DNA of 64,000 bases from Malania oleifera (taxonomy: Eukaryota; Streptophyta; Magnoliopsida; Santalales; Ximeniaceae). Location of the stretch: positions 57,199,889 to 57,263,888 of the forward strand of contig NC_080422.1 of assembly GCF_029873635.1 (NCBI RefSeq), written 5' to 3'. The notes beneath the pieces were generated by a model. The model did no database searches and was not told the origin of the DNA. It saw only the letters and a list, made by a program, of their open reading frames with translations. Within the stretch, counting starts at the first letter, position 1; every line of letters starts with the position of its first letter. Of this stretch, positions 11,430 through 63,329 are shown piece after piece. The translations under genes were made by a program, and so were the position numbers.

Positions 11430-11901
11430 AGAGAGCTCGGGTGACTGAACCCCTGAAGTTCAAAACTCCTCAGGCACTCGAATTGTTGAGAAGTCAACAG
11501 TTGATTTAGGCTCTCGGGCGACCAAACCATTTTGTGCATATTGTCCACAGGAGCCCGAATCCATCGAAAGGGACATTCCACCAACTCAGGCGACCAAACA
11601 CATGAGTTCGGGCCATCAAACATATGGCTGGGCACCCAAAGTTACGAAGCAATGCTACTGACTTTGATTCGGGTTGCCGAAGCATGACACGGGCGACCGA
11701 ATCTATTTAAATATCTCTTATTCCTATGTCTGTTTGGGCGATCGAACCACGGTTCAACCACCTGAACCTCGGCGGGTTAAAAATTATTTAACTGCAATAA
11801 AATTGAGTTAATTTGGGTTAAATGTGCTTAAGCATTTTTGAACTTTTCTAATAATACACAATAGGTCCCAAACGATTATATTTTAACCTTGTCTATAAAT
11901 A
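11430..11901 (+). promoter_or_regulatory. Motif array (TTCGGGCGACCGAA) and TATA box in 5' LTR
   Basis: About nine degenerate copies of an imperfect palindrome TTCGGGCGACCGAA occur between 11430 and 11785. Examples are CTCGGGTGACTGAAC, CTCGGGCGACCAAAC, CACGGGCGACCGAATC and TTGGGCGATCGAACC. Spacing is irregular, 20-60 bp. TATAAATA follows at 11894. An outlying copy GGTCGACCGA sits near 11281. The arrangement matches the other Sirevirus-like LTRs in the window, with a different motif in each. Confidence 0.65.
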
Positions 11902-12774
11902 TGGGTTCATTTTTGTGGATTAAGGAGAGATTAAGAAAAATCATTAGCCAAAATTCTATCAAACCCAAAATCCCTTTTTTGCCTATAATACTTCCAAACA
12001 CTCTCATACCTTCATTCCATTGATTAATCTTAGCTTTGTGAGAGTTCGTGCTTGGTTTATTAATTAGTAGAGGTTGCTAATGCTCTCATTGTTCTTGTTT
12101 GATTGATTGATTTATTTTTGGGGAGTTAGCAAAGTTTATCCTATAGATTTTCATATTATAAATCTTGTGTGGGGATAAACTAAGTAAGCTTAGTGTATTT
12201 GCATCTTTGTTGCAAGTATCCAATAGCTTGGTTTTTGTTGTGCAAAAATTTTTCAAACAAGCAAATATTTTCAAACTAGTATTGTGCATATTTCATTGAG
12301 GAAAACTCTTTTGAACTAGTTTGATTATCTGATTCGTATCTTTTGGAATATTGATTTTCTATTGAAGTACTTTGTTTAGATTCCAAGATATTGCATGTAT
12401 TGAACACTCTTGAGCATATCACTAATTATACCATATTGAGTGTTGTTAGCATAACTATTTGCATCACTGAGCATACATGACCTACATTATTGATGTGTAT
12501 GTGATTGTGCGTATGGGGTACATATCTGTTTTACATGAAAGCATAATCACTGTTTCGTTTGAGTGAACATTTTGTTGTATTTCCAGGCGTAGCCTGAGGG
12601 GGCAGTAATCCAGTCCTGTAAGAATTGTGTAAAGGCTGGGGTTAGCCTTGTGAATTTGACCTAGGGCTTTCTTCGCCCCACAAGAAGAGTATGTAAAGGT
12701 TAAGGTCAGCCCTATACTAAATGATCTGGTTGTATTAGGTGTTGCTCCACCCGTTATGTGAGCTTTAATGGAAT

Positions 12775-12816
12775 TCTCGGGCTTTCGAGCTAGAGGTGGG
12801 GACATAGGCACAGTTG
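12775..12816 (+). promoter_or_regulatory. Conserved leader hairpin plus GGACATAGGC
   Basis: TCTC (12775-12778) pairs with GAGG (12793-12796) and GGCT (12780-12783) with AGCT (12788-12791) around loop TTCG, with one internal G-A mismatch. GGGGACATAGGC and GGCCGAACC follow. The same structure occurs in the LTRs at 31075, 45071 and 51869. Other subfamilies have a different stem sequence at the same place. Confidence 0.6.
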
Positions 12817-13058
12817 GCCGAACCCCAATAACATATTGTGTGTGCATTGTTTATATTTCTGCAATTTATATTTTCGCACGTGTATGCTATAGTGTGAATG
12901 TTGCATATGATTTAATTTCCACATTATATTTATCTATGCGTTTTGGAACTGCATAGACAGACCTTAGGTTGTGAATGAACTGCTGCTATTTAGGTCAAAT
13001 CTATTAAAAGTTTTTAAATTCCAATTCACCCCCTCTTGGGAATACACCAAAGCTAACA

Positions 13059-18467: not shown

Positions 18468-18604
18468 TATTGACTCTATGAGTCCAATCCTATTTTGATA
18501 ATGACAAATCACTTGGTATTTGATCTGTGCATTGAGATTGTGAATAGGAACAATATTTAGCATGCATGGTAGGTGATGAAGTCATGGAAACCACGAGGAT
18601 TAAA

Positions 18605-18606
<2 letters not shown>

Positions 18607-18642
<36 letters not shown>
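18607..18642. repeat. AT microsatellite
   Basis: An ACACACAC run passing into (AT)n within U3 of the 3' LTR at 18468. Similar runs lie at 19625-19652, 22965-22982, 46499-46520 and 51064-51085, all inside LTRs or element interiors. Confidence 0.9.
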
Positions 18643-18644
<2 letters not shown>

Positions 18645-18949
18645 ACACCCTGGCACAAGCTATGAAACTAAGAAGAGTAGAATAATGAAGATGCAAGCAT
18701 CTTATGCAAGCATCAAGTTCAAGATCGTCATGGGAATGGGTATTTAGAATTGATGTATGTGCATATTTTTTATGATATAGGTAGAAGCTCAAAATATATA
18801 CACATGCATCTCATGAAAACCTTCTAGGGTTAAATATGGATTTAGAGAACTTATTTTTAAACCTTGGAAAATGTTTTAGAAGAGGTTAAAGCAAGAGAGC
18901 TCAAATGGTTTTTGAAAACAAAATAAAAAAACTGAAGTTGGACTGCCCA

Positions 18950-19322
18950 TACGATTGAGGATTACCCTTAGAAGTGTAAAGATGCAACTTCAGACAACTG
19001 AAGAATTAGTTCAGAAGTCTGAAGAATTAATTTTGAAACACAGAACAAACATAACACCTTCAGACGTCTGAACCTTAAGTTTAGTCTTCTCAACTAGGGA
19101 CTTCAGAAGACTGAACCCTCAGTTCAGTTGTCTGACCCTGTGTCCAAACTTAAATTTTCAGTGCTTTAAAGAACATCAAACGTCTGAACCCGAATCTTCA
19201 GTCATCTGAACCTGCGGGAAGTTTAAAAATATTATCTTTAGTGAGAGAACACGCAGGTTATACACTTGATCAAATTGATCCAATGGTCAAGAATTATCCT
19301 AAGGCCAAGATTACCTATATAA
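18950..19322 (+). promoter_or_regulatory. TTCAGACGTCTGAA array and TATA box
   Basis: Variants of the 14-bp palindrome TTCAGACGTCTGAA recur: CTTCAGACAACTGAAG (18989), AGTTCAGAAGTCTGAAG (19008), CTTCAGACGTCTGAAC (19049), CTTCAGAAGACTGAAC (19091), AGTTCAGTTGTCTGAC (19112) and AAACGTCTGAAC (19177). The TATATAA-like box is at 19316-19322. The placement relative to the TATA box is the same as in the other subfamilies. Confidence 0.65.
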
Positions 19323-19621
19323 TCAACCTCTAAACCCTAGTGCCTCAACTTTTGGCATGAGATTGAGTGTCTTGAACGTTTAACACAACTTGGGAGTGCA
19401 TTGAATACACTGCTGAATTCTTGCTTGGGATTTCAAAGCATATACGTCAAATCTGAGCTAAGGCTACATTGATTTTCAAAAGGCATTCTAGCGATTGTTG
19501 TGCATTCAAATTGGTATTGAGGTTTGGTAAATCGATTTATTTGTTACTACTTATTCTCAAAGAGTTTTCCATCTAAAAAATTTATCATTGAATATTATTT
19601 GAGAGATTGATCTTGAGTGTA

Positions 19622-19656
<35 letters not shown>

Positions 19657-20280
19657 TTGAAAAGATCACTACTTGAGAAATGTTTTTCCAATGGTTGAAT
19701 ATTTTTTATTCAAGTGTTTATTCATTTAAAGACTCGATATTTTCGATATTACAAAACCACTTGATTGAATATCCTAAGAGCTCATAACTATATATATTAT
19801 TGAGGGTTATTTTTTGAAAAATGTTATATTAGGTTTTTGATCTTTGGAACACATATTATATATGTACATATTCATATACAAAGATTATATTATGTTTTGG
19901 ATATTTGGAATAAAACTTATCGATCTAGATTTTTAGAGCAAAATTGAATTACATATTTGTATTGAGATCATTTGGTTGGATTCAATATTTGAAGCGGAAT
20001 AGTCATATTCTTTTAAACCAAAGATTATTAAGAGATTTTATTGACCACATGGCATACACTCATTGAGCTTCAAGTTTTTATCATATGAATATGTGTTAGG
20101 AATTTCCATTGTACTCACTAGCTTTATTAGAAGCAATATTGAGTTTTTGCAAATTTGAAAGTTTATATTGTAATCATGGTTCGGGTTGTGAACCGGGTAA
20201 GGAGAAAGCTGTGCCTCTTATAAGCAACGGACTGTAAGGGAAGCTCCGTCCCGGTTAAAGGAGCAGGGATTTAGTGGAGT

Positions 20281-20314
20281 CCTTGAGTGGGTTGCTCAAG
20301 GTAAGGACGTAGGC
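20281..20314 (+). promoter_or_regulatory. Conserved leader hairpin (stem CCTTGAG/CTCAAGG)
   Basis: CCTTGAG (20281-20287) pairs perfectly with CTCAAGG (20295-20301) around the 7-nt loop TGGGTTG. GTAAGGACGTAGGCCGAG follows. This is the third stem version of a hairpin found at the same place in all Sirevirus-like LTRs here. The base changes on the two arms compensate each other. Confidence 0.65.
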
Positions 20315-20605
20315 CGAGTTGGCTGAACCTCGAAAAATCGTGTTTTCCTTCTCTCTTCCCTTATCTTTTTAATTTCCACTTGCATTTCATTATCAGCTTT
20401 TGCATGTTTGTATGTCGATTTATATTATACACACTTGATAATTAATTGGGTAAAATAGAATTTATTGAGATAATAATTTGAATTAATTTCAACCCCCTGC
20501 AATTAATTTGTTAAATATTGAAATAAGGATTAAGTGGTAAAATAAACTTAAATATTTTTAAAATACCCAATTCACCCCCTTTTTGGGATTACACCTGAAT
20601 TAACA

Positions 20606-21001
20606 GTATTATGGGAGCCAAGGTAAGCTTGCCAATTAGCGTTTTAAAAGCCTCTTGACAAGCTTGTGTCCACTTAAATGGGGCATCTTTAGCTAGGAGG
20701 TCACATAGTGGTATAGATACGGTGGAAAATTTCTATATAAACCTCCTATAAAAGCTCGTATGACCAAGAAAGGATCTCACATCCTTTACTGTCTAAGGTG
20801 TAGCCAACTTTGAGATTAATTCAATCTTAGATTGATCGACCTCTATCCCCCTAGATGAAATAATATGCCCTAAGACAATACCTAAAGGTACCTTAAAGTG
20901 GCATCTTTCCCAATTCAAAACCAATTCCTTCTTCTCACAACGAGTCAACACTATCTCTAAATTAAAAAAATATGCATAAAAAAAAGATCCAAAAACAATC
21001 A
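20606..21001 (-). pseudogene. pol: Gypsy reverse transcriptase C-terminal part
   Basis: The minus strand reads FNLEIVLTRCEKKELVLNWERCHF...GIVLGHIISSRGIEVDQSKIELISKL, then a stop, then GHTSFYRRFI-like and FSTVSIPLCDLLAKDAPFKWTQACQEAF, ending LTLAPII at 20606. This is the part of RT after the YxDD motif and the connection to RNase H of Athila/Tat-like elements. YxDD itself was cut away by the LTR that starts at 21002. It continues, after a gap of about 50 codons, into the RNase H fragment ending at 10984. Confidence 0.88.
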
Positions 21002-21592
21002 TGTTGGCCTTACAAGGATTAAAATCTTGTTTTGATTATAAAAAATAAGATGAACTTAACATATTTGGTTAAGTGATGATATTTTAGGACTCAAGTGTGT
21101 GAATACAAAGTCAAATGCTCATAAGGATCATTCAAAGCTTATACTTCAAAGAAAGATGAACAAATGAAGCTTAAAGAGTCAAGGCATGGATTCAAAGATG
21201 TCCTATTAAAGCTTGAAAAATATGAGAGCATGGATGTTAAAGAGGACTTGCTAAAAAGCTTAAAATATATTAAAACTTGAAGACAAGATGAAACCAAAGA
21301 AAGACAAAGCAAGAGAGCTCAAAGAAAGACAAGCATGAAGACTTAAGTGATTAGAATGTCAAACGTCCTAAGAAGTCTTTACGTAAGTACTTCATATTTA
21401 AATATTTTGTGAAATACTTTTGAAGCTCTTCTAGGATTATTCATTGACTTAGAGACTTTATTTAAAACCCCAAAAAATGTTTTATGAAGAAGCAAAGCAA
21501 AAGAGAAAAAATGTTTATTGTTTAAAAAACAAAACTTAAGAAACAGGATTTGGTTTGCCCAGCCGTCTGAGGTGTACCCTCAGACGACTGAA
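21002..21592 (+). mobile_element. Truncated Sirevirus-like LTR (U3 part)
   Basis: It begins TGTTGGCCTTACAAGG, as does the LTR at 33405, and runs through U3 to a short array with CAGCCGTCTGAGG and CCTCAGACGACTGAA near 21560-21590. There the gypsy LTR at 21593 cuts it. The motif is intermediate between those of the LTRs at 33405 (CAGCCGACTGACC) and 18468 (TTCAGACGTCTGAA). TATA, leader and U5 are absent. Confidence 0.8.
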
Positions 21593-23824
21593 TGTAACGC
21601 CCCGACCCGTCATGTGGGGCCCGAGGTGCTCCTTTAGTGATGTCTGTGTACCTGATACCAAACTCATCATATAAAATGCAGTGAAAATAAAAGATACAAT
21701 CTCCAAAAATCCATTACCAGAGTTCTATACTACCTTTATACACAAATAAATCCATTTTCTCATAATTACATCCCATAAAACTAAACAAAAATAAAATCTC
21801 TATCTATACATACTACCTACATAAATTTACTCAACTAGCCTGACTCCTCTAGCCTACTAGACCCGATCTTTAGGATTTCCTGAAAAGACAGTTTGAAAAG
21901 TAGGGGTGAGGCATAGCTTAGTAAGGGAAAATCTAACTTAATGTCAATGTGTGACCAACATGCATTTAGTGTACAGAAAATAACATGTTCACTAAGTAGA
22001 TAAATACATTTATGAAATCATTCTTATTTTTTACCCACACAGACAATTAGCCGAGGATAAGGAAGATTACCCGCCCATACAAGTATCTTCCCTCTACTCT
22101 AATACCATTACTGCTACTAGGGCACTCACCTTTCTCAGTAAGCCCTCGAAGTTATCTTGATAATTATCTGTGTTTATATAAATTAACAAATATGCATATA
22201 AGACAATCCTTGTGACAAACACGCCATTTACTTCCCCCATGGCATGGGTTGTGCAGCTCGAAGGCTGGACTAAGCCTGGGTGATCAACCCAAACAAAGTC
22301 AAAAAAACCACATCCTCTGCAAGCACGTCTGTAGGCATTCACAACAAAGCTGTAGGTCCAACGCCCTTACTTCAACATCATGTAGGCAGTTGGCTGGGAC
22401 CCCCTACACTTCTATTTGGAATAGTGTGGGTGCATATGGTCTAACTAGTAGCGGTACCGTGCTCACAATACACTGGTCCCTAAGGTTCCTAAAGCATATC
22501 ATGCAATTTAGATAGTAGAAATCACCATTTAAAATATCAATTCACTTATATTTCCTGTTATTCCAAAAACCTAGCCCCCGACCACAAATACAATCCGGCA
22601 TATAGCTGTCAATTAAAATTCGGTCCTCGGCCATCAAATAATAATCCTGACCCTTGGCCAATCAAACAATACCTGGCCATTGGCCGTTATTTCAAACTTC
22701 AACATTTCATAATCAGTTCTAGTATTTTCGCAAGCATTTCTAGTATTTCTCAAACAATTTTGTATTTCAAAATCCCAAATCCAGATATACTAATCCATAC
22801 CAATTAAATCATCCACCACACAATTTTCCACATTTTAACATAACCATATAAACAAACAAGCTTTCCACATTCATTTTATTCAAAAATACCATACTAAATA
22901 TCCTAGATTTGTAAAATTCATTTCGAACGGTGGGTTTTCAAAATAACCTTTAATTTCTTAAATAAATATATATATATATATAACAATTTAATAAATTCAT
23001 GTTTAATAAAATCCTGACTTAACTTAATCTCCTTTATTTGATTTCCTAAAAAGCCTAATACAACTCCGACCTACGCCTCATGGTGTTCAAAACCCCTGAA
23101 CACTGAAATTCAAACTTTACAACATTATTCAACACAATCCCCAGAGTAACTTTTTCTAAAATCCCTTTAAATTCTAAATACCCTAGATAGCCTATTAAAA
23201 GCCTAAATTGTTAAACTTACCCTCGATTTAGGGTTGGTGCCCTGGAGTTCCAACTCGAAAACCCACTCCAGCTAGATTGTAAAGATTCTCCCCACGAATC
23301 TCTTGGCAATTTACGTTCGTCAATTGGGCTTAAGATTTAAGAAAAATTGAGGTAAGAGTGAGAATTGTCCATACCCCAGGAGATATACCTACATATCTCC
23401 CACGACAAATCCACTCCGATGGGAATGTCGGTGGCGGAGATAGGAACCCAACGATACTTTCCGTTTTCCGATAGGCCAAGTATTGGAGAAGAAATTGAGG
23501 AGTGTAGGAGAGAGAAAATGAAGAGACGAGAGAGTGAGCGTGAGAGATACAGAGAGGGGTGGGGGTTTTAGCTTCTCTGCAGGAAATGTTCCTGAAGGAT
23601 CTTTTGATCCTTGAGGATCCTTTTAACTTATATTATATATAATATATATTACTATAATAATAATATTATTATTATTATATTATATTATTTAATTAATAAT
23701 AATTATTTAAAATTTAAAATAATTAATTTTAAATTTTAATTTTAATTAAAATTTTTAATTATTTTTTTAAATTTAATTTCATTTTTTTTACACTTCCAAG
23801 CATATCATTTTCCAAGGCATTACG
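21593..23824 (-). mobile_element. 3' LTR of a minus-strand gypsy element (TGTAAC family)
   Basis: The left end is TGTAACGCCCCGACCCG and the right end GGCATTACG (expected TACA). TTCTCCCCTCAT, a polypurine tract when read on the minus strand, follows immediately. This fixes it as a 3' LTR with its internal region to the right. An AT-rich stretch with TATATAATATATA near 23625-23650 may include the promoter. The 23640-23760 segment is nearly pure A/T. No motif array is evident. Confidence 0.75.
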
Positions 23825-24582: not shown

Positions 24583-25618
24583 GTAAAGAAATTTAGGGAT
24601 TTGTTAACTTGTATCCTTGCTAATTATTGCAAATGAACATGTATATATAGGCAAGGTGGAAATTTTGACCATTGGGGACTCAATGGGGATAATTAGAAAA
24701 GTTTCAAACAAGTTTAGAAAAAATAACCCAGTTTGCCCTTTTCAATTTTCAGTAAAAATTAATTTAACTTAAGAGATTAGGGTGCCCGGTTTGAGGTTCG
24801 GGTGTCCGAATAGAATCATTCAAAAAATTAACTTTTAACGGCTCGAGTGCTCGAAGTTAGGGTCGGTTGGCTAAACAAAAGTCATAAGCATTTTGTCTGA
24901 GGTTCGGGTGCCTGAAGCTAAGTTGGCTAACCGAACTAGCAAGTTCGGTCACTGGAAGTCTTTTTGAACGCAAAGGTTCGAGCACCGGGGTTGGTGAAAA
25001 GTGCTCTGACATGGATTCGGGTGACCGAGGAAGATATGTTCAAATTGGTTCGGTCTGCCAAACAAGAAGTCAACAATTTGACTTTGTCTGGGGTTCGGTC
25101 ACCCGAGGCATTTTAAACACCACAGGTTCGGTTGCTTGAGCTCTCTCAAGATTTTCAATTAAAGTCCAATTTTGCTTTATTTAATTCCCCTGATTATGTA
25201 AATGATATGGGGACTGTTTGTGCATTTTTTTAGGGACCTAAGGACTTTCTATCCTACCCAAAAAATTTGGCGTCGGTCGACCAAATCCCTAAGATCTTTC
25301 TATGGTCTTTATAGGTACCTAAATTCCAACTAGGGTCGATTTGAGCATACCTACCTATCATGCATGATGCAAATTATGACAAGCCATAGGAGTGTAGAGT
25401 CCATAATGAAGTTACATTCAAAAATGAAGAAAATGAATAATAATTACAAATACAACATAGATTTCTTCATTGTTCTACTTGATCACCATACTCCATCATG
25501 ATATGTCTTTCAGTTCGAGTACACACGTAGGCTGAACCTGCATGCAAGCCTTAGTGCAACCATCAGTACCAAAAATATTTATCATTATCAAAACTGGGTG
25601 TGACCTATCAGGTCAACA
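24583..25618 (-). mobile_element. Truncated Sirevirus-like LTR (U3 through TATA)
   Basis: Reverse complement of the LTR family at 10985 and 31075. The start TGTTGACCTGATAGGTC lies at 25618 and homology runs leftward to just past the TATATATA box near 24640, where it abuts the gypsy RT remnant. The array of GGTTCGGGTG-CCGAA-like motifs (24780-25150) is well preserved, for example TTCGGGTGACCGAGG and TTCGGTCACCCGAGG. Leader and U5 are missing. Confidence 0.8.
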
Positions 25619-31074: not shown

Positions 31075-33136
31075 TGTTAGCTTTGGTGTATTCCTAAGAG
31101 GGGGGTGAATTGTGCATTTAAAAATTATTGCCTTGGTCAATCGGTTTAACAACAGTATTACTCAACCTAGGGTCTATCTATACAATTATAAACCCAATCA
31201 TTCACAATAGTAAAATATAAACATTCATGTGCTGGAATTTAAAATGCGAAAATTAAAAGCGTGCACAAGAAATGTTATCGGGGTTTGGCAAACTATGCCT
31301 ACGTCCCCACCTCTAGCTCGTAAGCCTAAGGATTCGACTAATGCTCACTTAACGGGTGGAGCGGCACCTAATACAACTAGGTCAATTAGCACAGGACTGA
31401 CCTCAACCTTTACAAATTCTCCTTGCGGGGTGGAGAAGGCCCTAGGTCAAATTCACAGGGCTGACCCTAACCTGATCCTTCCGGGCTAGATCAAGCCCCC
31501 TCAAGCCACGCTTGGAAATACAGCAGTATTTTTCACAACATAACTAGTACAGTGATTATGCTTCTTAAGTAAAGTAGATATGTACCCCAATACACACATT
31601 ATACTCAATCAATCACACATAAACAATATAGGAAATGTAAGCTCAGTGATGTGATTTTATGCAAGCAACACTCAACAAGGTATTATCACTAATATGCTCA
31701 AGAGTGTTCTAATCAAGCTATTTCTTTGAAATAGTAAACATCAAATCTCAATAATGAATTAGAGTTTCAAAGATGCTAATCAAATATTCAAGCTGACTCA
31801 AAATATTTTCCTTAAATGAAATAGGCACAAGAGTAGTTTGAAAATTTTATAGCTTTGTAAAAATATTTTTGCACACAAAATATAAGCTCTAATGAGTCTT
31901 GCAATGACAATGCAAAGACCCACTTAGTTATAAGAGTTTTCCCACACAAATATTTATCAAATAAAATCGGGGGAAAAATCAAGCTAAACCCTCAATATGA
32001 AAATCACAAGCATAAGAGCAAGTAAGGGTTTTTAGAAAAATGGAGTAATTAATAAAACACTCACAAAGCAATATTTCTCAAAGGAATGGAAGTATTATGA
32101 GTGTATGCGGTTGGAATGAACAAATAGGGTTTAGGAAATTTGAGAGAATTTTTGGCTAATCCTATTTGCTAATCATGCCTTAATTTTGCAAATGAAGAGA
32201 TATATATAGGCATAGGCAAAAGTATGACCGTTGGGGACACCAAGGGTATTCTTAAAATTTTTTTAAAATGGTTTAGGAAAATAAACCCTGTTTAATTAAA
32301 TTCAACCCCGGTAAAAAATAATTTAACCCGCGAGATTCGGGTTCCTGGTATGAGGTTTAGCTGCCCGAATATACTTAGTCAGAAATTCAATTTTTAAACG
32401 TTCGGGAGCCTGAAGTCAGCGTTGGTTGGTTGAACCAAAGACAGAAACATTTTTTCTGCAGTTTAGGTGCCCGTAGCTGAGTTTGGTTATCTGAACTAGC
32501 AAGTTCGGTCACCTGAGGCCTTTTTGAACGTGAAGGTTCAGGTGCCCGGGTTGGTGAAAAGCACTCTGACATGGGTTTGGTCGACCGAGGGCGATGCGCT
32601 CATTTCTGGTTCCGTCGCCCAAAACTAGGTCAACCCGTTGACTTCGTAGCGGTTTGGGAGCTCAAGGTGTTTTGAACACGATGGGTTCGATCACCGGACC
32701 TCTCACAAATTTTTGCCTATTTAGTCCATTTTTAAGCCAATTGATTCCCTTGATTATGTAAGTGATATGGGGACTATTTGTGCATTTGTTTAAGGACCTA
32801 AGGTCTATCTATCCTACTGGAAAAATTCGGCGTCAGTCGACCGAAGGTCATTCGGTTCTTATGGTCAGTCTATGGCATTTCTGAGCTTACAAACCTACAT
32901 GCATGACATGCAGAGATTATTACAGACCATATCCCTAGTTACTATTATAGACCCATATTACATTATTTGACTTTACAATATGAAGCAGAATCTTTAGGGT
33001 CTTTAGGCTTCATTTCAGGTTGCCGCATGCCATTATATGAGTATTTGCCAATAAGAACCTACACACAAATTTGGCAACCATTAAATACCTGAGTATTTGT
33101 CATAATCAAAATAGGGTATGACCCATGCAGTCAACA
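31075..33136 (-). mobile_element. Solo Sirevirus-like LTR, TSD CTTCT
   Basis: Minus-strand LTR from TGTTGACTGCATGGG (33136) to ...ACACCAAAGCTAACA (31075), flanked by perfect CTTCT at 31070-31074 and 33137-33141. It is the same family as the 5' LTR at 10985. A TATATATA box lies near 32201-32208. The array with consensus TTCGGGTGCCCGAA/GGTCGACCGA is at 32330-32710, the leader hairpin at about 31313-31334, and GGACGTAGGC on the minus strand near 31300. There is no internal sequence, so it is a solo LTR inside the Athila-like gag-pro region. Confidence 0.92.
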
Positions 33137-33404: not shown

Positions 33405-33925
33405 TGTTGGCCTTACAAGGCTTAATATCCTATTTTGATTCTAACAAATAAGAGAAACTTAACATATTTGGTTGAGTAATTGTATTTCAGGACTCACAAG
33501 GATCAAGCATGTAAAAGCAAAGTCAAGGATCCATTACAAGCTTATACCTCAAAGAAGGATGATCATATGAAGTTTAAAGCATAGATTTCAAAATGAAATT
33601 TTAAAGCTTGAAGAATATGAGACAAAGCTTAAAAGTATATCAAAGCTTGAAGAAAAGCAAAAGAGACAAAAGAAAGCAAAACAAGAGAGCTCAAAGAAAA
33701 GACAAGCATGAAGACTCATGCGCCAAGAATGTTCAAAGTCTTAGAAGTCTTTATGTAAGTGCTTTATAATTTAAATATCTTTTGAAATATTATTGAAGCT
33801 CTTTAGGGGATATTTATGGACTTAGAGACCTATTTTAAAACCCCGAAAAATGTTTTATGAAATATCAAAGAAAGAGAGCAAAACAAATTTTGAAAACTAA
33901 GAATGAAAAACTAGAAAAATGAACT

Positions 33926-41710: not shown

Positions 41711-41813
41711 GGTCAGCCGACTGACCACAGGCTTAGCTGACTGACTGAGCAAATATCTTAAGGAGAAAGGATAGGTCAGCCGACTGGTCATAAGCTCAGT
41801 TGAATGACTGAAG
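41711..41813 (+). promoter_or_regulatory. Internal copy of the element's own LTR motif array
   Basis: GGTCAGCCGACTGACC at 41711-41726 is identical to the first LTR unit at 33926-33941. It is followed by TTAGCTGACTGACTGAGC, GGTCAGCCGACTGGTC (41774) and CTCAGTTGAATGACTGAAG (41795). The surrounding 41467-41934 is otherwise non-coding, and I do not recognise it as LTR sequence. A minus-strand TATATAG-like site lies about 90 bp away (41616), so an eroded reverse-oriented LTR piece is an alternative. Confidence 0.6.
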
Positions 41814-45070: not shown

Positions 45071-45509
45071 TGTTGACTTTATAGGTCACGCCCGGTTTTG
45101 ATTAATGACAAATACTCATTGTATCTAATGGGTGCTTGAGGCTTTGTGCAGGAACTTAAATTGACAGATCATAATGCACATGGAGAGAGTGAAGCTTGAA
45201 GACTAAATTTCTATTGAAGGCCCAATCTCTCTTGTTGTAATATATTTCATTCATGTAAAGGGTCTGTAATAGTAATTAGGGCTTTGATTGTAATAATTGC
45301 ATGCATCACCTGCATGATGTAATGTGTAAGCTCAAAATGAGAATGACCTCAGAAACCTTAGGGGTTACCCTTCGGTTGACTAAATTTTTTTGGTGTCTTC
45401 AAAAGGACCAAGAAATAACCCTAGGAAACTCACCATTGCACTCATATATGTTAGGCACTTGAATAGGGTGCTTGTGAATCAAAATAAGACCGAAATGCAC
45501 ACTTTGTGC

Positions 45510-45957
45510 ACTTTCGGTCGATCGGCCTATGCAGTTCATTCTGCCCCGGTCGACCAAATCCAGTCTGGGTCAACTAGTTGACGACAATTGGATCAACCGA
45601 ACCTTTACAATTCAATTGACCCTAGTCGACCGAACTTCCCAAGAGTCAACAGTTTGACTACCTGGTCGACCGAATCATGAAGTTCAAATATCCCTGGCTG
45701 ACCGAAGCATGGTCCTTTCAAAAATCGCTCATCCTGGTTGACCGACCCTGAAGTTCAAAAATTTCCCGATCGATCGAGCCATATGAACTTCGGTCGACCG
45801 AAAGTATTTTGGTCGACCGGGTCACTCCAGTTGCCCATAATTTTTTACCACGGTTAAATATTTAAAACGGGGTTAATTGCGTTAAAATGGTTTAAAATGT
45901 TTCTAATAATACCCAATAGGTCCCTAATGGTTATAACTCTTCCCATGTCTATATATA
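45510..45957 (+). promoter_or_regulatory. GGTCGACCGA array and TATA box (5' LTR)
   Basis: About eight to ten units around the palindrome TCGGTCGACCGA: GGTCGATCGGCC (45516), CGGTCGACCAAATC (45548), GTCGACCGAAC (45613), GGTCGACCGAATC (45663), GCTGACCGAAGC (45695), GGTTGACCGACC (45736), CGATCGATCGAGC (45767), CGGTCGACCGAAAG (45792) and GGTCGACCGGG (45811). The TATA box is at about 45950. Confidence 0.7.
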
Positions 45958-46990
45958 TGAGATCATTTGTGAAAATTAGTAAGGGATTAGCCATTTTGAT
46001 TAGGAGAGATTCTCTGATATTCCTAAAATCTATAATACTCTTCTAAGCCCAAACCACTCATACTTACCTTCTCTTATTGCCAAAAGTCTTTTCTAAGTTG
46101 ATTGAGTGATTATTCTTAAAGGTTTGATCTCCTTGTTTGTTTGATTGAAACAATTTTCTTGAGAGCTAAACCTAAGTTTCCTTAGGGGGCTTTGATAATA
46201 AGCCTATCCTAAGAAGACTTACATTTAGCTTCTGAGTATTGCATTCGTGTTGCAATATCTTAGAAAACTTGTATTTGTTTTTGGGTTGCAAAAAGGTTTT
46301 CAAAAACATTCTCAAATATCTCTTGGGATTTACATTGATATATTTGTGAAAAGATATTTGTGTTTGCGATATTGATCTTTATTGTAATATTTATTCACTT
46401 ACATATCATTTTATGAATACAAATATCATATATCTTTTTGCAAACCAAACATATACATTACTTGAGCATCATACGATTGAGAAAATCTGCTGATTGAAAT
46501 ATATATATATATATATATATGTTGTTTGGCTGATATCTTTGTATGAGCACTTAGATTGAATACATCTTGTGATACAAAGATCATATAGGTTTGCACTCTC
46601 ACGCACTCATTACATAGATAGTAAATATATTTGAGAGTTGAAATAATATACCACACTAGCTTACATATTAAATCACTTGTGGTGTATGTGACTGAGCGTA
46701 TCTAGGTACACATCTGCTTTACTTGAAAGCATAATCACTATACCATTTCATTGATTGAGCAAAACGGTTGTATTCCAGGTATGAGCTTGAAAAGGGAGAC
46801 TAGCCCTTTGAAATAGTCCTGGATTGACTTAAACCCGGTTAGGAAAGCTAGGTGCACCATCCTGTTAAGGCGTGTAGGTTGAGGTCAGCCCCGTTAATTG
46901 ACCTAATTTTAAAGGTCGAGGTTAGCCCTATGCTAATTTACCTGGTTGTAATCGGTGCCGCTCCACCCTTAAGTGAGCCTTTAGTGGAAT

Positions 46991-47025
46991 CCTCAGGCTT
47001 GCGAGCTAGAGGCGGGGACGTAGGC
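46991..47025 (+). promoter_or_regulatory. Conserved leader hairpin and GGACGTAGGC
   Basis: CCTC (46991-46994) pairs with GAGG (47009-47012) and GGCT (46996-46999) with AGCT (47004-47007), loop TGCG, with one A-A mismatch. CGGGGACGTAGGC and GGCTGAACC follow. An almost identical copy is in the 3' LTR near 53818-53839. Confidence 0.6.
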
Positions 47026-47276
47026 ATAGTTGGCTGAACCCCGATAACATATCATGTGTTTGTTTATATTTTCACACTCTATATTAGCCACATGTGTATG
47101 TTATGGTGTGAATGATGCGCATGATTTTAATTTCCATACATTATATCTACCTGCGCATTTAGGATTGTATAGAAAGACCCTAGGTAGCTAAATCATATTG
47201 ATTTCTGATTTAACCTAGGAGAAAAGTTTTAAAATTCAAATTCACCCCCCCTCTTGGGAATACACCAATTCTAACA

Positions 47277-51868: not shown

Positions 51869-54102
51869 TGTTGACCTTATAGGTGACGCCCGGTTTTGAT
51901 TAATGACAAATACTCATTGTATCTAATGGGTGCTTAAGGCTTTGTGCATGAACTTAAATTGACAGATCATAATGCACATGGAGAGAGTGAAGCTTGAAGA
52001 CCAAATTTCTATTGAAGACCCAATTTCACTTGTTGTAATATATTTCATTCATGTAAAGGGTCTGTAATAATAATTAGGGCTTTGATTGTAATAATTGCAT
52101 GCATAACCTGCATGATGTAATGTGTAAGCTCAAAATGAAAATGACCTTAGAAAGACCTTAGGGGTCACCCTTTCGACCGACACCGAATTTTTTCGGTGTC
52201 TTCAAAAGGACCCAGAAATAACCCTAGAACATTCACCATTGCACTCATATATGTTAGGCACTTGAATAGGGTGTTTGTGAATTAAAACAGGACCAAAATG
52301 CACACTTTGTGCACTTTCAATCCATCGGCCCATGCAACTCATTCTGCCTCGGCCGATCGAATTCGGTCTGGGTCAACCAATTGACCACAGCCTGGTCGAC
52401 CGAACCTTTATAGTTGAATTGACCCCGGTCGACCGAACTTCCTAAGAGTCAACAATTTGACTACCTGGTTGACCAAGCACAGAATGAACTCCAATGCTCT
52501 AGTCGACCGAGGGTCCTCGGGAGAAGTCCCAATGGTCTGGTCGACCGAATCATGAAGTTCAAATATCCATGGTCGACCGAACCGCGGTCCTTTGAAAAAT
52601 CGCTCATCCTGGTCGACCGAACCTAAAGTTCAAAAATTGCCCGATCGACCGAGCCATATGAACTTCGGTCGATCGAAAGTGTTTTGGTCGACCGAGTCTC
52701 TCCGGTTGCATTGAATTTTTTACCGCGGTTAAATATTTTAAACGAGGTTAGTTGTGTTAAAATGTTTTAAAACTTTTCTAATAATACCCAATAGCTCCTT
52801 AACGATCACAACTCTTCCCATGTCTATATATATGAGATCATTTGTGCAGATTAGTAAGGGATTAGCCATTTTGATTAGGGGAGATTCTCTAAAATTCCTA
52901 AAATCTATAATACTCATTTCTAAGCCCAAACCACTCATACTTACCTTCTCTTATTGCCAAAAGTCTTTTGTAAGTTGATTGAGTGACTATTCTTAAAGGT
53001 TTGCTCTCCTTGTTTGTTTGATTGAAATGATTTTCTTGAGAGCCAAACCTAAGTGTCCTTTTGGGGCTTTGCTAATAAGCCTATCCTAAGAAGACTTACA
53101 TTTAGCTTCTGAGTATTGCATTCGTGTTGCAATATTTTAGAAATCTTGTATTTATTTTTGGGTTGCAAAAATGTTTTCAAAAACATTCTCAAATATCTTG
53201 TGGGATTTACATTGATATAGTTGTGAAAAGATATTTGTGTTTGTGATATTGATCTTTGTTGCAATATTTATTCACGTACATATCATTTGTTGAATACAAA
53301 GATTATATATCTTCTTGCAAACCAAACATATACATTACTTGAGCATCATACGATTGAGAAAATCTGCTGATTGAAATATATATATGTTGTTAGGCTTATA
53401 TCTTTGTTTGAGCACTTAGATTGAATACATATTATGATTCAAAGATTATATAGGTTTGCACTCTCACGCACTCATTACATAGATAGTAAATATATTTGAG
53501 AGTTGAAATATTAGACCACACTTAGCTTACATATTAAATCGCTTGTGGTGTACGTGACTGAGCGTATCCGGGTACACATCTGCTTTACTTGAAAACATAA
53601 TCACTGTACCTTTTCATTGATTGAGAAAAACTGTTGTATTCTAAGCACGGGCTTGAAGAGGGAGACTAGCCCTTTGAAATAGTCCCGGATTGACTTAGAC
53701 CCGTTTAGGAAAGCTAGGTGCGCCATCTTGTTAAGGCGTTTAGGTTGAGGTTAGCCCCGCTAATTGACCTGGTTGTAATTGGTGCCGTTCCACCCTTAAG
53801 TGAGCCTTTAGTAGAATCCTCGGGCTTGCGAGCTAGAGGCGGGGACGTAGGCATAGTTAGCCGAACCCCAATAACATATCGTGTATTTGTTTATATTTCC
53901 GCACTCTATATTTACCACACGTGTATGTTATAGTGTGAATGATGCGCATGATTTTAATTTCCATACGTTATATCTACTTGCGCCTTTGGGATTGTATAGA
54001 AGGACCCTAGGTAGCAAAATCATATTGATTTTTGATTTAACCTAAGAGTAAATTTTAAAATTCCAATTCACCCTCCCTCTTGGGAATACACCAATTCTAA
54101 CA
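51869..54102 (+). mobile_element. 3' LTR of the gag-only element
   Basis: Close match of the 5' LTR, with TGTTGACC start and TTCTAACA end. The array (52165-52710) has about twelve units and includes a segment of about 70 bp (around 52474-52545) absent from the 5' LTR. TATATATA lies at about 52824, the hairpin at 53818-53839 and GGACGTAGGC near 53843. Confidence 0.94.
52165..52833 (+). promoter_or_regulatory. GGTCGACCGA array and TATA box (3' LTR)
   Basis: The clearest array in the window. GGTCGACCGA occurs near 52393, 52428, 52538, 52571, 52609 and 52685, with variants GTCGACCGAGG (52502), GATCGACCGAGC (52641), GGTCGATCGAAAG (52667) and GGTTGACCAAGC (52467). Spacing is 20-45 bp. TATATATA follows at about 52824. 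Confidence 0.75.
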
Positions 54103-54107: not shown

Positions 54108-56176
54108 TTTTAATGCTAGCAAACAAGATAAACTTAACATATTTGGTTGAGTAATTTTATTTTAGGACTCACAAGGATCAAGCATGTAAAAGTAAAGTCA
54201 AGGATCCATTACAAGCTTATACCTTAAAGAAGGATGATCATATGAAGCTTAAAGCATGGATTTCAAGATTAATTTTTAAAGCTTGAAGACTATGAGAAAA
54301 ATCTCCAAAGTATATCAATGCTTGAAGAAAAGCAAAAGAGACAAAAGAAAGCAAAACAAAAGAGCTCAAAGAAAAGACAAGCGTGAAGACTCAAGCGCCA
54401 AGAATGTTCAAAGTCTTAGAAGTCTTTATGTAAGTTCTTCATATTTTGAATACCTTTTGAAATATTATTGAAGCTCTTTAGGGGATATTTATGGACTTAG
54501 AGACCTATTTTAAAACCGTGGAAAATGTTTTATGAAAGATCAAAGAAAGAGAGCAAAACTAATTTTGAAAACTTAAAATGAAAAACTAGAAAAATGAACC
54601 GGTCAGCCAACTGGCCAGATTAAACTAGGTTTACTCAGCTGACTGACATGAATACAATAGTTAAATAAACTACCCACCCGACTGACCAAATGTATTGACG
54701 TTACTCAGTCGACTGATAAGTCCAGCCGAGTGACATTTTTTAACGTGGTTGAGTCAGCTGACTGATATTCTAATGGAATTAATTTTTGGAAGATAGAAAG
54801 GTATAAGTCACGTGTCCAACCGACTGACCCTGTGAAAATTTCCTACTCAGTCGCCTATCTAGCCGATTGACTCTATGGGAATTTGAATTTTTGAATTTAA
54901 ATGGAAAATTTCTAAAAATAAGTTTTTCAAAGGTAATTGTTATAAAAACTTGGGGGACACTCCAAGCAACGTGGGGAACAAGGAAACTCTTCCTAAAAAC
55001 TCTATAAATACATGGTTTTACAAATTGAACTACACAAGAAAGAGCCAAGGAATTGAAAAATCTTCTGAAAGTAATCTTACAAACTGACTGTTCTCTCTTG
55101 CTCAAATCCTTGCCCAGCGGGTATTGTTGAATTTCTGAAAGAGCTGATCTTCCTAATCTATTCCTACTGCTAATCCTCATCTAAGAAGAATATTGGTGAA
55201 TTCTATACTTGAGCTTCAACTCTATTTCATCTTAATATTTAATTCTTAAAGTACATAGTATTGAATTTGTACTAATCTACTCTGTCTTGAGAGTGTTCTT
55301 GTACGCAATGTTTATGTCATATATTTTATAGTTCTTGGATGATTCAAGGTGTTTGGATCATTGGCAAAGCATGGGGTATTGCTTAGAGAGGTGTTGCTCT
55401 AGCCTAATTGAAGGAGTGACCGAGTGAGGGGATATCACTTGGAGAGGCGGGCTCTAGCCTACTGAAGGAGTGTGTTACGGTGTTGTTCCACCTGGAAAGG
55501 AACTGGTTTTAGTGAATTCTTTGGTGGTGTGCTAAAGGTGAGGACATAGGCTGGGAATAAGACAAACCTCGTAAAAATATGATGTCTCTCTCTCTTTCCC
55601 TTACTTTCTTTACTTTCAACATATATAAACTGCGTGGATGCTTTAAACACTTTAATCATATACACTACGTGGATTAGATATTAAATAAACTTAAGCTTAA
55701 TTTTTTTTTGGGGTTGCGAAAACCGAAAGGGAGTATGTTGGTTGATCCATACTTTGCAGAAACCGTAAGAGAGTACGTTGATCGGTGAAACACCCAAAGA
55801 CTCTTTAACTGAAAGTTTATTTAATTTCTAAGATTTTGGAAAGAGTATTGGATTTTATATTTCCCTCCATTTTAAGAAAGAAAATTCATTATCCCAGGGC
55901 TTGTATTAACCACAGGGCTTGAATCAAACTTTCATATATACAGGGCTGCAAGCAAGCAAAAGCTGAATCATATATCTTAGTTTGAATATTGTGGTTGATT
56001 GATTGACAAATTGGTTAAGTACTTTGTTGGTATATGGTTGTGGATTGAATATTTTTTTAAAGTATTTATTGTGTATTTGATAAATCAACAAGAAGTCAAG
56101 ATTTTATTTAAAATAATTAAAAGAATTTTTTAAATCCAATTCACCCCACTCTTGGGACTACACCTTGGTTTTCAAT
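54108..56176 (+). mobile_element. Remainder of the interrupted 3' LTR
   Basis: Continues the LTR begun at 45044. Array of CAGCCGACTGACC variants 54600-54870, TATAAATA at 55003-55010, leader with GGACATAGGC near 55540, end ...GGACTACACCTTGGTTTTCA-AT. Together with 45044-45070 it makes 2096 bp, the same as the 5' LTR. TSD ATTGC follows at 56177. Confidence 0.92.
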
Positions 56177-60480: not shown

Positions 60481-61450
60481 CCTTTATATGGCATGTTCTT
60501 TTATTCAAAGGTAAGACTTTCCTATTATAATGATTTGTTTTACTGGCATATTGTATAACTATGCAATTCAATTTGAGAATAAAACATGTTAGCATACTCT
60601 TATGGATTATGTTTATGGATCTTGTGTCTTAGGATTCTTGTTCATCACCAAAAACCATGAAAAAACTTTATCCTACTCTAAAGGGTCTTGAATTGTCTTC
60701 AAAGAGAGCAAACCAAATGAATGAATTTCTCATGATGCCTACATGGAAGACAAAGCCCCATGAAGGTCCTTACATCTCCTTCCTTCTCCTATTTCCTACA
60801 AGGTATGCATAAATAGTTATTTTCTACCCAAATAATTTTAACTCAAATGAGGATGTCAAAATTCTAAGAAAATAAAGAGAAAAACTAGAAATTTCAACTA
60901 GGCGGTCAACCGGCCACTAAAGACGGTTGACTAGCCTTCCGTCCAAATCTACTTGCCAACATCGGGCTTTATGGACTCACTTGGGTTTCCAATATTTGGC
61001 GATCATTTCAAAACTAAAAAAGTATAAAGAACCTAACCATTGATTCATCTAGCTTGTCCTTTTTATTTTGGAAAATAGAGTCACTACTTTATTTTAATTT
61101 TTGAAAATTCAAAATAAAGGAAAACCGTTTTAAGGAGATTAGGTTTTGGAGTACATTTTGGAATAGAAAATCTAATACTATAAATTCATTCTAATTAGAA
61201 TTCAAAGCATTAACACCCTAGATCACCCATTCCATTGAATGGTTACTATGCTTACTTAGTGTCTGTGAATTTGTACATCCCATTTTGAAATAATTTTCTC
61301 AAAACAAGCATTTGGAGTTTTGTAAAAATGAATTTAATTTTGAAAACCAGGAGGTCAACCACCTACAAAGGTCGCTCGACCACTAAAGGCGATTGACTAG
61401 CCTATCAACTTGCTAACATCGAGCTTTATGGACTCACTTAGGTTGCCAAC
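60481..61450. other. Non-coding segment with a direct repeat of about 100 bp
   Basis: No coding is seen. A block with GGTCAACC, CCACTAAAG-CG-TTGACTAGCC, AACATCG-GCTTTATGGACTCACTT and GGTT-CCAA-TATT occurs at 60902-61000 and again at 61352-61456. The first block sits about 250 bp upstream of a CTATAAATT box (61187), as do arrays in LTRs. It is probably LTR U3 material of another subfamily, but I cannot find LTR ends. Confidence 0.5.
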
Positions 61451-63329
61451 TATTGGCCTAACATGGATTTCGAATCTTATTTTGATGGTAACAAAGAAAG
61501 GTAAATGTAACATGTGGTTTAAGTGATGATGTTTCAGGAAATCAAGTATATGAAGTTCAAAAGTTCAAGTATCTTGAGTTCAAGATCACAAGTGTCATTA
61601 AATGTTCATACTCCAAACAACAAGTGATCAAAAGGAAGCTTAAAGGGACAAAGACGGACAAACCTTATGAAAGCTTAAAGGATATTGAAGCTCAAGACAA
61701 AATGGACTCAAAGCAAAGATATACAAGAAGACTTTAAGTTTAGAAAGTTTTAAAGTCTTAAGGAAGTCTTGTGTAAGTACTTATTTAAATTTCAAAATGT
61801 ACTTATTTAAATACCAAAATGAATGCTTTGAAACTCATTAGCGTTATTCATGGACTTAGAGACCTTACTTTGAAAACCCTTGAAAATATCTTTCTAAAGT
61901 ATCAAAACAAGTTGACAAGAGTTTTTAAAACAAAATATTAAAAAAAATAGTGTTCCAGCTGTTCAGGTGATTGATTCGTGTCTAATCAGGCGACTGACAA
62001 TTTTGCTGAATTAAATTTGGATGATAGTATAGGCTCAGGTGATTGACCGCTCTAAGATCAGGTGACTGACCCTGTGCTGACCTTGAAATTATGTTGTATT
62101 TAGAGATCAGGCGACTGACCTCGATGAGTTCAGGCGACTGACCTTCGTAATGGCCAGTTTAAAACGACGTTTAAATGTTTCCAAAATGAGTTGTTTGTGT
62201 TCCAAACTTTATCAAAACTTGGGAAACACTCCAACTAATTTGGGCAACATGAAAATATGACTGTTTACCTCTATAAATACATGATTTCTCAATTTGAATT
62301 GATTAACCAAGAATTGAAAATATGATTTCAAGCCTATATTGCTCATACTCTCTCAAAGCCTTCTTGCACACATATACTTGCTGATATTTTCTGAGAATTA
62401 CTGAGTTATTGTTCACTGATCTTTGAGCACAACTTATGAGTTTTGAATCAATCAAAGAAAGATCCCAGTGATATACTCTTTGAGCTTCAATTCTATTCTT
62501 CATTGATATTTACATTGAAGTATTGATTAGTTGTGCTAAATCTTGTACTAATATGCTCTATTTGAGAGTAATTCTTCTATGCAAGAAATTGTTCTTGTTT
62601 TCTTGTACTCTTGACTATTTAGGGCTGTTCAATTGTTGTACTAAGCGTGGGGTATCACTTGGAGAGGAGGGCTCCAACCTATTGAAGGAGTGTAGTAACA
62701 GTTTGCTCTGCCCGAAAATGAGTGTTATAGTGGAAAACATAGGTGGCATCCCTAAGGCAAGGATGTAGGCGGGTAGAGCCGAACCTTTTAAAAACTCAGT
62801 CTCACTATCCTCCCTTACTCTTTAATTTTCTGCATATATAAACTGTGTGGTTGTTTATTTAACTGCAGGAAACTAAATTGATATTAGGATTGAGGAAACT
62901 TTAATTAAAGGGAGTATGTTGATTAATCTTTTACAAAAACCTTAAAAGGAGTATGTTGATAAATTGTTTGCAGAAACCTTGATTAAAGGAAGTGCATTGA
63001 TCAAGGAACCTAATTGACAATAAAGATTGAATCTTCAAAGTACTGTTGTAATTCAAATATTATTTAAGTAACTTGTTGATTGTGTTGATATATTGGTTGA
63101 TTGATTGATTGGGTGTTGGTTTAAATTGCTGCAAGATCAAGTTGATACACTTTCCAATTATGATTTAAAAGTGAATTTGATTTTCAGCTGAATATTATAA
63201 TTGAAATTCTAACCATCCTTTTGTGATTGCTAAGAATAAAATAAGTTATGAAATAATTTATTAAAAGAATACAAAAAAATTTGTATAAACCCAATTCACC
63301 CCCCTCTTGGGACTACACCTTACTTTTCA
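61451..63329 (+). mobile_element. 5' LTR of a Sirevirus-like element (TGTTGGCC subfamily relative)
   Basis: Starts TATTGGCCTAACATGG (expected TGTTGGCC) and ends CCCCCCTCTTGGGACTACACCTTACTTTTCA, directly followed by a PBS. Array 61966-62150, TATAAATA 62272-62279, leader with a short TAGG/CCTA stem and GGATGTAGGC near 62760. Clearly a relative of the LTR at 33405 with a different array motif. Confidence 0.85.
61966..62279 (+). promoter_or_regulatory. GATCAGGCGACTGACC array and TATA box
   Basis: Units: GTTCAGGTGATTGATTC (61967), AATCAGGCGACTGAC (61984), GCTCAGGTGATTGACC (62034), GATCAGGTGACTGACC (62056), GATCAGGCGACTGACC (62105) and GTTCAGGCGACTGACC (62128). TATAAATA is at 62272. The motif differs by one or two bases from those of the LTRs at 33405 and 10985. 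Confidence 0.7.

What the first reader, a model, noticed from the sequence alone, without database searches (positions are those of the whole stretch)
11430..62279. Each LTR subfamily carries its own version of one dyad-symmetric motif, arrayed just upstream of the TATA box
In at least eight Sirevirus-like LTRs, 6-12 copies of a 12-16 bp dyad motif lie 100-450 bp upstream of a TATA box. Aligned, the motifs form a near-continuous series: TCGGTCGACCGAA (45071, 51869), TCGGGCGACCGAA (10985, 24583, 31075), TCAGGCGACTGAC (61451), TCAGCCGACTGAC (33405), TCAGACGACTGAA (21002) and TCAGACGTCTGAA (18468), with CAGACGACTG in 36198. All fit TC(R)G-N-CGAC-YGA with one or two changes between neighbours. The surrounding U3 sequence is otherwise largely unalignable between subfamilies. 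Palindromic motifs near the LTR promoter are a described Sirevirus hallmark. The graded, subfamily-specific variation within one locus looks like co-evolution with a diversifying DNA-binding partner. Precedents in kind are VANC proteins of Arabidopsis VANDAL transposons, each binding arrays of a family-specific motif. A host factor is equally possible.
Basis: partly seen in the sequence, partly recalled or inferred. Interest (0 to 1): 0.88.

Follow-up and report, generated by a model that had tools for sequence, protein, structure and literature searches.

The report
Sirevirus promoter palindromes differing by lineage
Old plant retrotransposons in this stretch carry rows of a short near-palindromic DNA word just upstream of their promoters, with different spellings in different lineages; such rows are a published feature of this retrotransposon group, but the way the spelling differs in step across the copies of a row is a useful lead to the unknown factor that reads them.

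Summary
The arrays are real. TCRGNCGNCYGA (at most one mismatch) occurs 41 times against 1.1 expected; 38 of 41 lie in LTRs. A consensus-free dyad scan puts six of the ten arrays among its top windows. The LTRs are Sirevirus-type and the arrays fit the published 'RM boxes' (Bousios 2010, PMC2829016), including element-specific spellings. So the kind is known. I find six versions; motif distance follows LTR distance (Mantel 0.87 upstream, 0.59 downstream), firmly only for the A versus B/C split. Three results go beyond the parts of that paper I read: (1) B/C arms are CAG/CTG instead of CGG/CCG: 64 of 82 arms CAG, none CGG or TGG (56 of 74 without B4, whose copies were picked by a CAG pattern). 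(2) Copies of one array share about 14 bp; flanks are near chance. (3) The last copy ends 128-133 bp before TATA in 8 of 10 LTRs. Best explanation: promoter-proximal sites of a dimeric, probably host, factor whose preferred spelling diverged by lineage. No partner was found; the own-genome search did not complete. The VANC analogy remains open.

The parts
10985..13058 (+). LTR A1 (class A125), followed by PBS
   Evidence: TGTTG start; PBS ACAATTGGTATCAGAGC at 13056; integrase signal 13029
11436..11766 (+). A1 dyad array, 10 copies, CTCGGGCGACCGAA
   Evidence: TATA starts 128 bp after last copy
11894..11902 (+). A1 TATA box
18471..20606 (+). LTR C1, a 3' LTR preceded by PPT at 18456
18989..19210 (+). 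C1 dyad array, 8 copies, TTCAGACGTCTGAA (centre variable)
   Evidence: TATA 106 bp after last copy
21002..21600 (+). LTR fragment B5 with 2 motif copies (21558-21592)
24621..25617 (-). LTR A5 (class A125), low end uncertain
   Evidence: BLAST to A2, 71.6% over 777 bp
24777..25140 (-). A5 dyad array, 12 copies, TCGGG, loose centre, CCGAA
31075..33136 (-). LTR A2 (class A125), looks like a solo LTR, AGAAG at both ends
32336..32699 (-). A2 dyad array, 12 copies; most copy positions homologous to A1 and A5
33405..35499 (+). LTR B1, 5' LTR
33927..34196 (+). B1 dyad array, 10 copies, TCAGCCGACTGAC
36223..38356 (-). LTR B4, inserted in the B1 element's gag
37787..37904 (-). B4 dyad array, 4 copies, CAGAYGACTG
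   Evidence: TATA 360 bp away, with an 80-bp minisatellite between
41712..41808 (+). D1: 4 copies of the B1/B2 version outside a recognisable LTR
45071..47276 (+). LTR A3 (5' LTR of the A3/A4 element)
   Evidence: TSD TCCTA; PBS at 47274
45513..45821 (+). A3 dyad array, 11 copies, CCTGGTCGACCGAA
51869..54102 (+). LTR A4 (3' LTR of the same element), PPT at 51857
52348..52696 (+). A4 dyad array, 12 copies, CCTGGTCGACCGAA
54103..56171 (+). LTR B2 (main part; its first bases lie at 45045-45070, split off by the A3/A4 element), PPT at 45032
54602..54871 (+). B2 dyad array, 9 copies, TCAGCCGACTGAC
61451..63340 (+). LTR B3 (end approximate)
61962..62142 (+). B3 dyad array, 6 copies, TCAGGCGACTGAC, three pairs at a 72-bp period
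62272..62280 (+). B3 TATA box, 130 bp after last copy

Best explanation
These are the repeated-motif (RM) boxes of Sirevirus (Ty1/copia) LTRs: arrays of a roughly 14-bp near-palindrome, about TCRG-N-CGA-CYGA, acting as promoter-proximal binding sites for a dimeric sequence-specific factor, most likely a host factor, that drives or gates transcription from the TATA box about 130 bp downstream. Shown: arrays, position, TATA distance, spelling that goes with LTR lineage, sharp motif borders. Inferred: that a protein binds, that it is a host protein, and that divergence of spelling reflects selection for different partners or different forms of one partner.
For: Enrichment and location. Sirevirus hallmarks: PBS at A1 and A3, PPT at A4, B2 and C1, C-rich integrase signal, gag PF14223, rve, SH3, RVT_2. 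The published RM description matches. Copies within one array are 0.56-0.87 identical while flanks are 0.19-0.38, with chance at 0.25-0.27: little beyond the 14-mer is kept. Last copy to TATA is 128, 128, 129, 129, 128, 133, 132, 130 bp in A1-A5 and B1-B3 (six independent insertions), although A and B LTRs are 41-50% identical; C1 106, B4 360. Leave-one-out assignment to 6 versions: 87 of 94 LTR-refined sites (B4's four taken by pattern), 82 of 100 unrefined sites, against permuted mean 0.19, max 0.32 for the unrefined. B/C arms: 64 CAG, 0 CGG, 0 TGG of 82; without B4 56 of 74; A arms 49 CGG, 23 TGG, 11 CAG of 114; centre CG kept in 19 of 41 B/C copies.
Against: No binding, expression or partner data. 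At homologous positions motif bases are not consistently better conserved than the rest of U3 at non-CpG sites: motif / spacer / 5' U3 are 0.68/0.55/0.71 for A1-A2, 0.59/0.53/0.59 for A1-A5, 0.74/0.77/0.64 for A2-A5, 0.85/0.90/0.94 for A3-A4, 0.85/0.84/0.93 for B1-B2, 0.64/0.51/0.60 for B1-B3; post-insertion decay would hide a difference. Helical spacing is only suggestive: R 0.45 at 10.5 bp over 46 spacings, but the peak is broad and the shuffle control (mean 0.26) reaches 0.71. All 29 refined copies of the asymmetric B versions (B1, B2, D1, B3) point the same way, which a symmetric dimer does not require and common descent would explain.
Confidence: 0.6

Rival explanations
1. Concerted evolution without selection on binding: duplication, slippage or conversion in the array spreads one spelling through each lineage.
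For: 72-bp two-copy periods occur in A4 and B3, and A3 lacks 72 bp (two copies) that A4 has. Copies of the B versions share one orientation.
Against: Spacers between copies of one array are near chance identity, while A1, A2 and A5 share 9 of 10, 9 of 10 and 11 of 12 copy positions pairwise; homogenisation that copies about 14 bp and leaves spacers alone is hard to get neutrally.
Confidence: 0.2
2. RNA or siRNA reading: the palindromes matter as hairpins in element RNA, or as small-RNA hot spots, not as protein sites on DNA.
For: Arrays fold better than dinucleotide shuffles in 6 of 7 tested (z -2.1 to -6.5; B3 -0.08; A3, B2, B4 not tested). Bousios 2016, as reported in passages of PMC10760457 and PMC5311732, links maize Sirevirus palindromes to small-RNA mapping.
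Against: Hairpins need self-complementarity, not the same spelling in every copy nor a constant distance to TATA. B3 has six clean copies and no excess fold. The test cannot exclude pairing between copies.
Confidence: 0.1
3. An element-encoded, VANC-like anti-silencing protein recognises each lineage's version.
For: Kind of pattern: VANC targets are short motifs in arrays that differ between related VANDALs (PMC5735166 passages).
Against: No DNA-binding Pfam family above its cut-off other than zinc knuckles and integrase in 30 of the 58 listed open stretches (20 of 26 in element interiors). Coding regions are decayed and no VANC model was singled out, so absence is weak.
Confidence: 0.06
4. 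The graded series is only CpG decay of one ancestral CGG-CCG motif.
For: CGG to CAG and CCG to CTG are CpG transitions, and A arms show TGG and CAG besides CGG (though TGG on the left arm of A3/A4, 12 of 23, looks like a fixed spelling).
Against: Decay should give TGG as often as CAG and spare some CGG; B/C arms are 64 CAG, 0 TGG, 0 CGG of 82 (56 of 74 without B4). Centre base 5 differs by transversions between versions.
Confidence: 0.04

Closest known systems
Sirevirus RM boxes (Bousios et al. 2010, PMC2829016; abstract, passages, sections 9 and 11 read)
   Same: Palindromic, high copy, 200-400 bp into the LTR, upstream of a conserved TATA, CpG-rich, one consensus per element; Vitis CGGTCGACCG occurs in copies of A3/A4; Usier GTCGGACGTCCGAC has the centre of C1.
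   Different: B/C versions have CAG-CTG arms; 12 of the 13 listed have a CGG-CCG core (Tnd-1 excepted). Several versions in one locus. A fixed 128-133 bp from last copy to TATA is not stated in the parts I read.
Maize Sirevirus palindromes (Bousios 2016; not held, seen only as cited in passages of PMC10760457 and PMC5311732)
   Same: Palindrome clusters in the LTR cis-region, described as highly variable and rapidly evolving.
   Different: CACCGGACNNNGTCCGGTG; small-RNA link not testable here.
Tnt1/Retrolyc1 U3 subfamilies (PMC1838419, abstract and passages)
   Same: Subfamilies told apart by the regulatory U3, read there as escape from or adaptation to host control.
   Different: In the passages seen: divergence of U3 as a whole, not graded spelling of one dyad.
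VANC targets of VANDAL elements (PMC5735166, passages)
   Same: Arrays of a short motif, differing between related families.
   Different: Partner is element-encoded and shown to bind; motif YAGTATTAY, not this dyad; VANDALs are DNA transposons (recalled).

Membership tests
Sirevirus (Ty1/copia) | LTR/PBS junction with TGGTATCAGAGC | tested here: met
   13056 (2 mismatches to the 17-mer used) and 47274 (3); not seen after B1, which reads AGCGAGGTTATT there
Sirevirus (Ty1/copia) | PPT AGGGGGAG joined to AT/TG at the 3' LTR | tested here: met
   45032 (0 mismatches), 51857 (1), 18456 (2)
Sirevirus (Ty1/copia) | C-rich integrase signal at LTR 3' end | tested here: met
   13029, 20576, 35471, 47247, 54073, 56145, 63300 (+); 31104, 36227, 63767 (-), 0-6 mismatches to a pattern taken from this window; 3 further hits at 5-6 mismatches lie elsewhere
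Sirevirus (Ty1/copia) | copia-type gag and pol | tested here: met
   A1: PF14223, rve, SH3, RVT_2; A3 and B1: PF14223, all above cut-off. No tblastn hit in A3/A4 or B1/B2 interiors with the 120 listed of 1057 proteins, mostly integrase/SH3 with some RT start
Sirevirus (Ty1/copia) | RT phylogeny inside Sirevirus | not tested
   one RT stretch with a Pfam match among those scanned (16667-17062); no tree made
Sirevirus RM boxes | Dyad repeats, at least 8 copies, upstream of TATA | tested here: met
   8-12 copies in A1-A5, B1, B2, C1; B3 (6) and B4 (4) fall short
Sirevirus RM boxes | CGG-CCG core | tested here: inconclusive
   met in A; not met in B/C (0 CGG of 82 arms); the paper itself has an exception, Tnd-1
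Sirevirus RM boxes | CpG-rich cluster | tested here: inconclusive
   array CpG o/e 0.87-1.30 in A against 0.31-0.63 in the rest of the LTR; B/C 0.23-0.78, with C1 and B4 below the rest
VANC/VANDAL system | Element-encoded VANC protein binding the motif | tested here: inconclusive
   no such Pfam match in 30 of 58 listed open stretches; coding regions decayed
VANC/VANDAL system | Loss of DNA methylation on binding | not testable with these tools
   needs plants

The most novel reading that the evidence does not exclude
Sirevirus lineages carry a lineage-specific address for one diverging regulator family: across an array both arms (CGG-CCG or CAG-CTG) and one asymmetric centre base (mostly T in A3/A4, G in A1 and B3, C in B1/B2, A in B4 and C1) differ together between lineages, while the CG next to it, the TATA distance and, within A125, the copy layout stay. 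The B/C spelling also has one CpG per site instead of three, so it may be an escape from methylation of the promoter sites.
Probability: 0.25. Interest if true: 0.72.

Novelty: new variant of a known kind. Interest (0 to 1): 0.45.

Why it matters
The 2010 paper could not name a factor for Sirevirus RM boxes, and none turned up in my searches. A set of natural spellings in one locus, matched to LTR lineages and placed at a near-constant distance from TATA, gives ready-made competitor probes to find it, and a way to ask whether promoter specificity of retrotransposons splits by lineage and whether CpG loss in the sites buys freedom from silencing.

Tried and rejected
Searching for outside Sirevirus LTRs failed: a PPT/att pattern in viral contigs gave 14 loci with no PBS and no tblastn hit to the five proteins tried, so chance; a pol protein found no relatives in viral or genome contigs. 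The gag ORF 47458-48432 found no homologue at E 0.001 among 1208 candidates.

Simple seed counting (12-mers, 3 mismatches) has the motif as top word in 7 of 12 regions (A1-A5, B1, C1), but only A4 is far above its 15 shuffles (13 vs max 8); A2, A3, A5 and C1 exceed the maximum by one or two, A1 equals it (9) and B1 lies below it (10 vs 12); in B2, B3, B4, B5 and D1 other words win. Kept as a weak result; the dyad-restricted scan is the stronger one.

Eight-group classification was rejected: A1, A2 and A5 copies are right in 10 of 34 (all groups 0.72), so I speak of six versions. LTR-refined sites make classification partly circular, and B4's four were taken by the pattern CAGANGACTG after refinement ran on wrong coordinates, so its CAG arms and centre A are partly by construction; the unrefined scan shows the same four. 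With transitions removed (R/Y code, eight groups) accuracy is 0.61 against a permuted mean of 0.13, max 0.26.

Helical phasing was considered and left as suggestive. CpG decay as cause of the B/C arms was rejected. A DREB-like GCCGAC in the B1/B2 version and other factor sites came to mind from recall only and were not tested.
Full report
What is there. The window holds at least ten Sirevirus-type LTRs with arrays, several nested. A1 (10985-13058) is a 5' LTR with PBS; A3 (45071-47276) and A4 (51869-54102) are the two LTRs of one element (TSD TCCTA) that sits inside LTR B2; B1 (33405-35499) and B2 (45045-45070 plus 54103-56171) are 90% alike over 2082 bp and B2 follows a perfect PPT, so they are very probably one element's LTRs; A2 looks like a solo LTR; B4 interrupts the B1 element's gag; C1 follows a PPT; A5 and B3 are further copies and B5 a fragment.

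Is the motif more than chance. TCRGNCGNCYGA with at most one mismatch occurs 41 times; 20 dinucleotide shuffles of the window give a mean of 1.1 and a maximum of 3; 38 of the 41 lie in the LTR intervals used, 2 in D1 and 1 at 9922. A scan that knows no consensus and asks only for repeated dyads finds 22 of 637 overlapping windows of 350 bp with four or more copies, none in one shuffle (maximum 3); 17 of the 22 lie on the arrays of A4, C1, A3, A5, B1 and B3, and 5 on a second promoter family. A1, A2, B2 and B4 do not reach four copies in that scan. A looser pattern is barely enriched (459 vs 426), and plain seed counting is weak.

Versions. Refining a 14-bp profile from a neutral dyad start gives A1 CTCGGGCGACCGAA, A2 and A5 TCGGG with a loose centre and CCGAA, A3/A4 CCTGGTCGACCGAA, B1/B2/D1 TCAGCCGACTGAC, B3 TCAGGCGACTGAC and C1 TTCAGA.G.CTGAA; B4 GACAGAYGACTG was taken by pattern after the refinement had run on wrong coordinates. 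Leave-one-out assignment to six versions is right for 87 of 94 refined and 82 of 100 unrefined sites; permuted labels on the unrefined give a mean of 0.19 and a maximum of 0.32 (D1 and B5 left out there). Held out as whole LTRs, A1, A2 and A5 copies fall in the A125 version in 9 of 10, 10 of 12 and 11 of 12. In eight groups the accuracy is 0.72 and A1, A2, A5 are confused.

Does the version follow the lineage. Over eight independent LTRs (A1, A2, A3, A5, B1, B3, B4, C1) profile distance correlates with LTR distance: 0.87 (p 0.0005) for sequence before the array, 0.59 (p 0.0035) after it. Permuting only within A and within B/C leaves p 0.005 before and 0.11 after the array; using only within-class pairs (n 12) the correlation is 0.58 before and -0.03 after. 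So the A versus B/C split is firm; finer tracking is supported by one side only. Nucleotide similarity of the interiors agrees in part: A1 and A3 align at 68% from LTR into gag, A1 and B1 there only over 248 bp.

Duplication or selection. Aligned on the motif, copies of one array are 0.56-0.87 identical inside the 14 bp and 0.19-0.38 outside, with chance at 0.25-0.27. A1, A2 and A5 share most copy positions (9 of 10, 9 of 10, 11 of 12) although their LTRs are 50-70% alike, so these arrays are old blocks. Yet A4 and B3 show 72-bp two-copy periods and A3 lacks 72 bp present in A4, so some copies come and go by duplication or loss. The keeping of little more than the 14-mer over such time is the best argument for selection on it. 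Against this, at homologous positions non-CpG motif bases are not consistently better kept than the rest of U3 (figures in the Against line); these are dead copies and much of their difference arose after insertion.

CpG arms. In B/C arrays (41 copies with D1, without B5) 64 of 82 arms read CAG, none CGG, none TGG; leaving out B4, whose copies were picked by a CAG-bearing pattern, 56 of 74. In A arrays (57 copies) 49 of 114 read CGG, 23 TGG and 11 CAG, with 12 of the TGG on the left arm of A3/A4. Decay of a methylated CpG is expected to yield TGG as readily as CAG (established knowledge), so the B/C arms are an inherited spelling. The central CG is kept in 19 of 41.

Centre base. In refined orientation the first centre base is T in 21 of 23 (A3/A4), G in 10 of 10 (A1) and 6 of 6 (B3), C in 17 of 23 (B1/B2/D1), A in 7 of 8 (C1) and 4 of 4 (B4, by pattern); A2 and A5 are mixed, G in 9 and 7 of 12.

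Promoter geometry. The TATA box starts 128, 128, 129, 129, 128, 133, 132 and 130 bp after the last copy in A1-A5 and B1-B3 (B1 and B2 also have a TATAAA at 70, A1 another at 391), 106 in C1 and 360 in B4, where an 80-bp minisatellite (37480-37752) lies between. The distance from LTR start to TATA varies from about 822 to 969 (from figures, B2's truncated start included). Adjacent copies in eight LTRs favour 19-24 bp (25 of 66 spacings) and 31-34 bp (15 of 66) (A1, A2, A5 are homologous arrays); phasing at 10.5 bp is suggestive only.

Mechanism. Best: binding sites of a dimeric factor near the promoter, version-specific by lineage. The 2010 paper already proposed regulatory function and that small changes may bind different factors. 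Rivals are neutral turnover, RNA structure or small RNAs (arrays fold well in 6 of 7), and an element-encoded factor. No partner could be looked for outside the window because the own-genome search did not complete (12 calls).

Literature basis. PMC2829016: abstract, passages, sections 9 and 11. PMC1838419, PMC10760457, PMC5311732, PMC5735166, PMC4029996, PMC9073684: passages only. Bousios 2016: not seen, as cited. That the CAG-CTG arms and the constant TATA distance are unreported rests on searches of open-licence papers and on the parts read; supplementary files and subscription papers were not seen.

Changes on checking.

Noticed in passing
4051-4198 (-) and 42052-42174 (+): A second, different promoter family has its own dyad array, CTCGTCGACGAG (6 and 5 copies), directly upstream of TATA boxes at 4043 (-) and 42203 (+); it shares the GTCGAC core with A3/A4.
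   Followed up: partly
10985-20606: A gag-INT-RT-PPT internal region lies between a class A 5' LTR and a class C 3' LTR that are only 48-49% identical; flanks GTAGT/GTATT match 4 of 5. Possibly a recombinant of two elements.
   Followed up: partly
45071-54102: The A3/A4 element has a gag-like ORF but no integrase/RT hit with the 120 proteins tried; perhaps non-autonomous or deleted.
   Followed up: partly
41712-41808: Four copies of the B1/B2 version shortly after a gag zinc knuckle (41185-41463), outside a recognisable LTR; compare extra RM boxes in the internal region of some published Sireviruses.
   Followed up: partly
37480-37752: 80-bp minisatellite (3.4 copies) between array and TATA in LTR B4.
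   Followed up: no
54219-54595 and 21166-21430: B-type LTRs have a second repeated word, AAGCTTGAAGA-like, before the dyad array.
   Followed up: no
25140-24777 and 32699-32336: Between A2 and A5 the array with its spacers (0.74-0.77, non-CpG) is better conserved than the LTR before (0.64) or after it (0.54).
   Followed up: no
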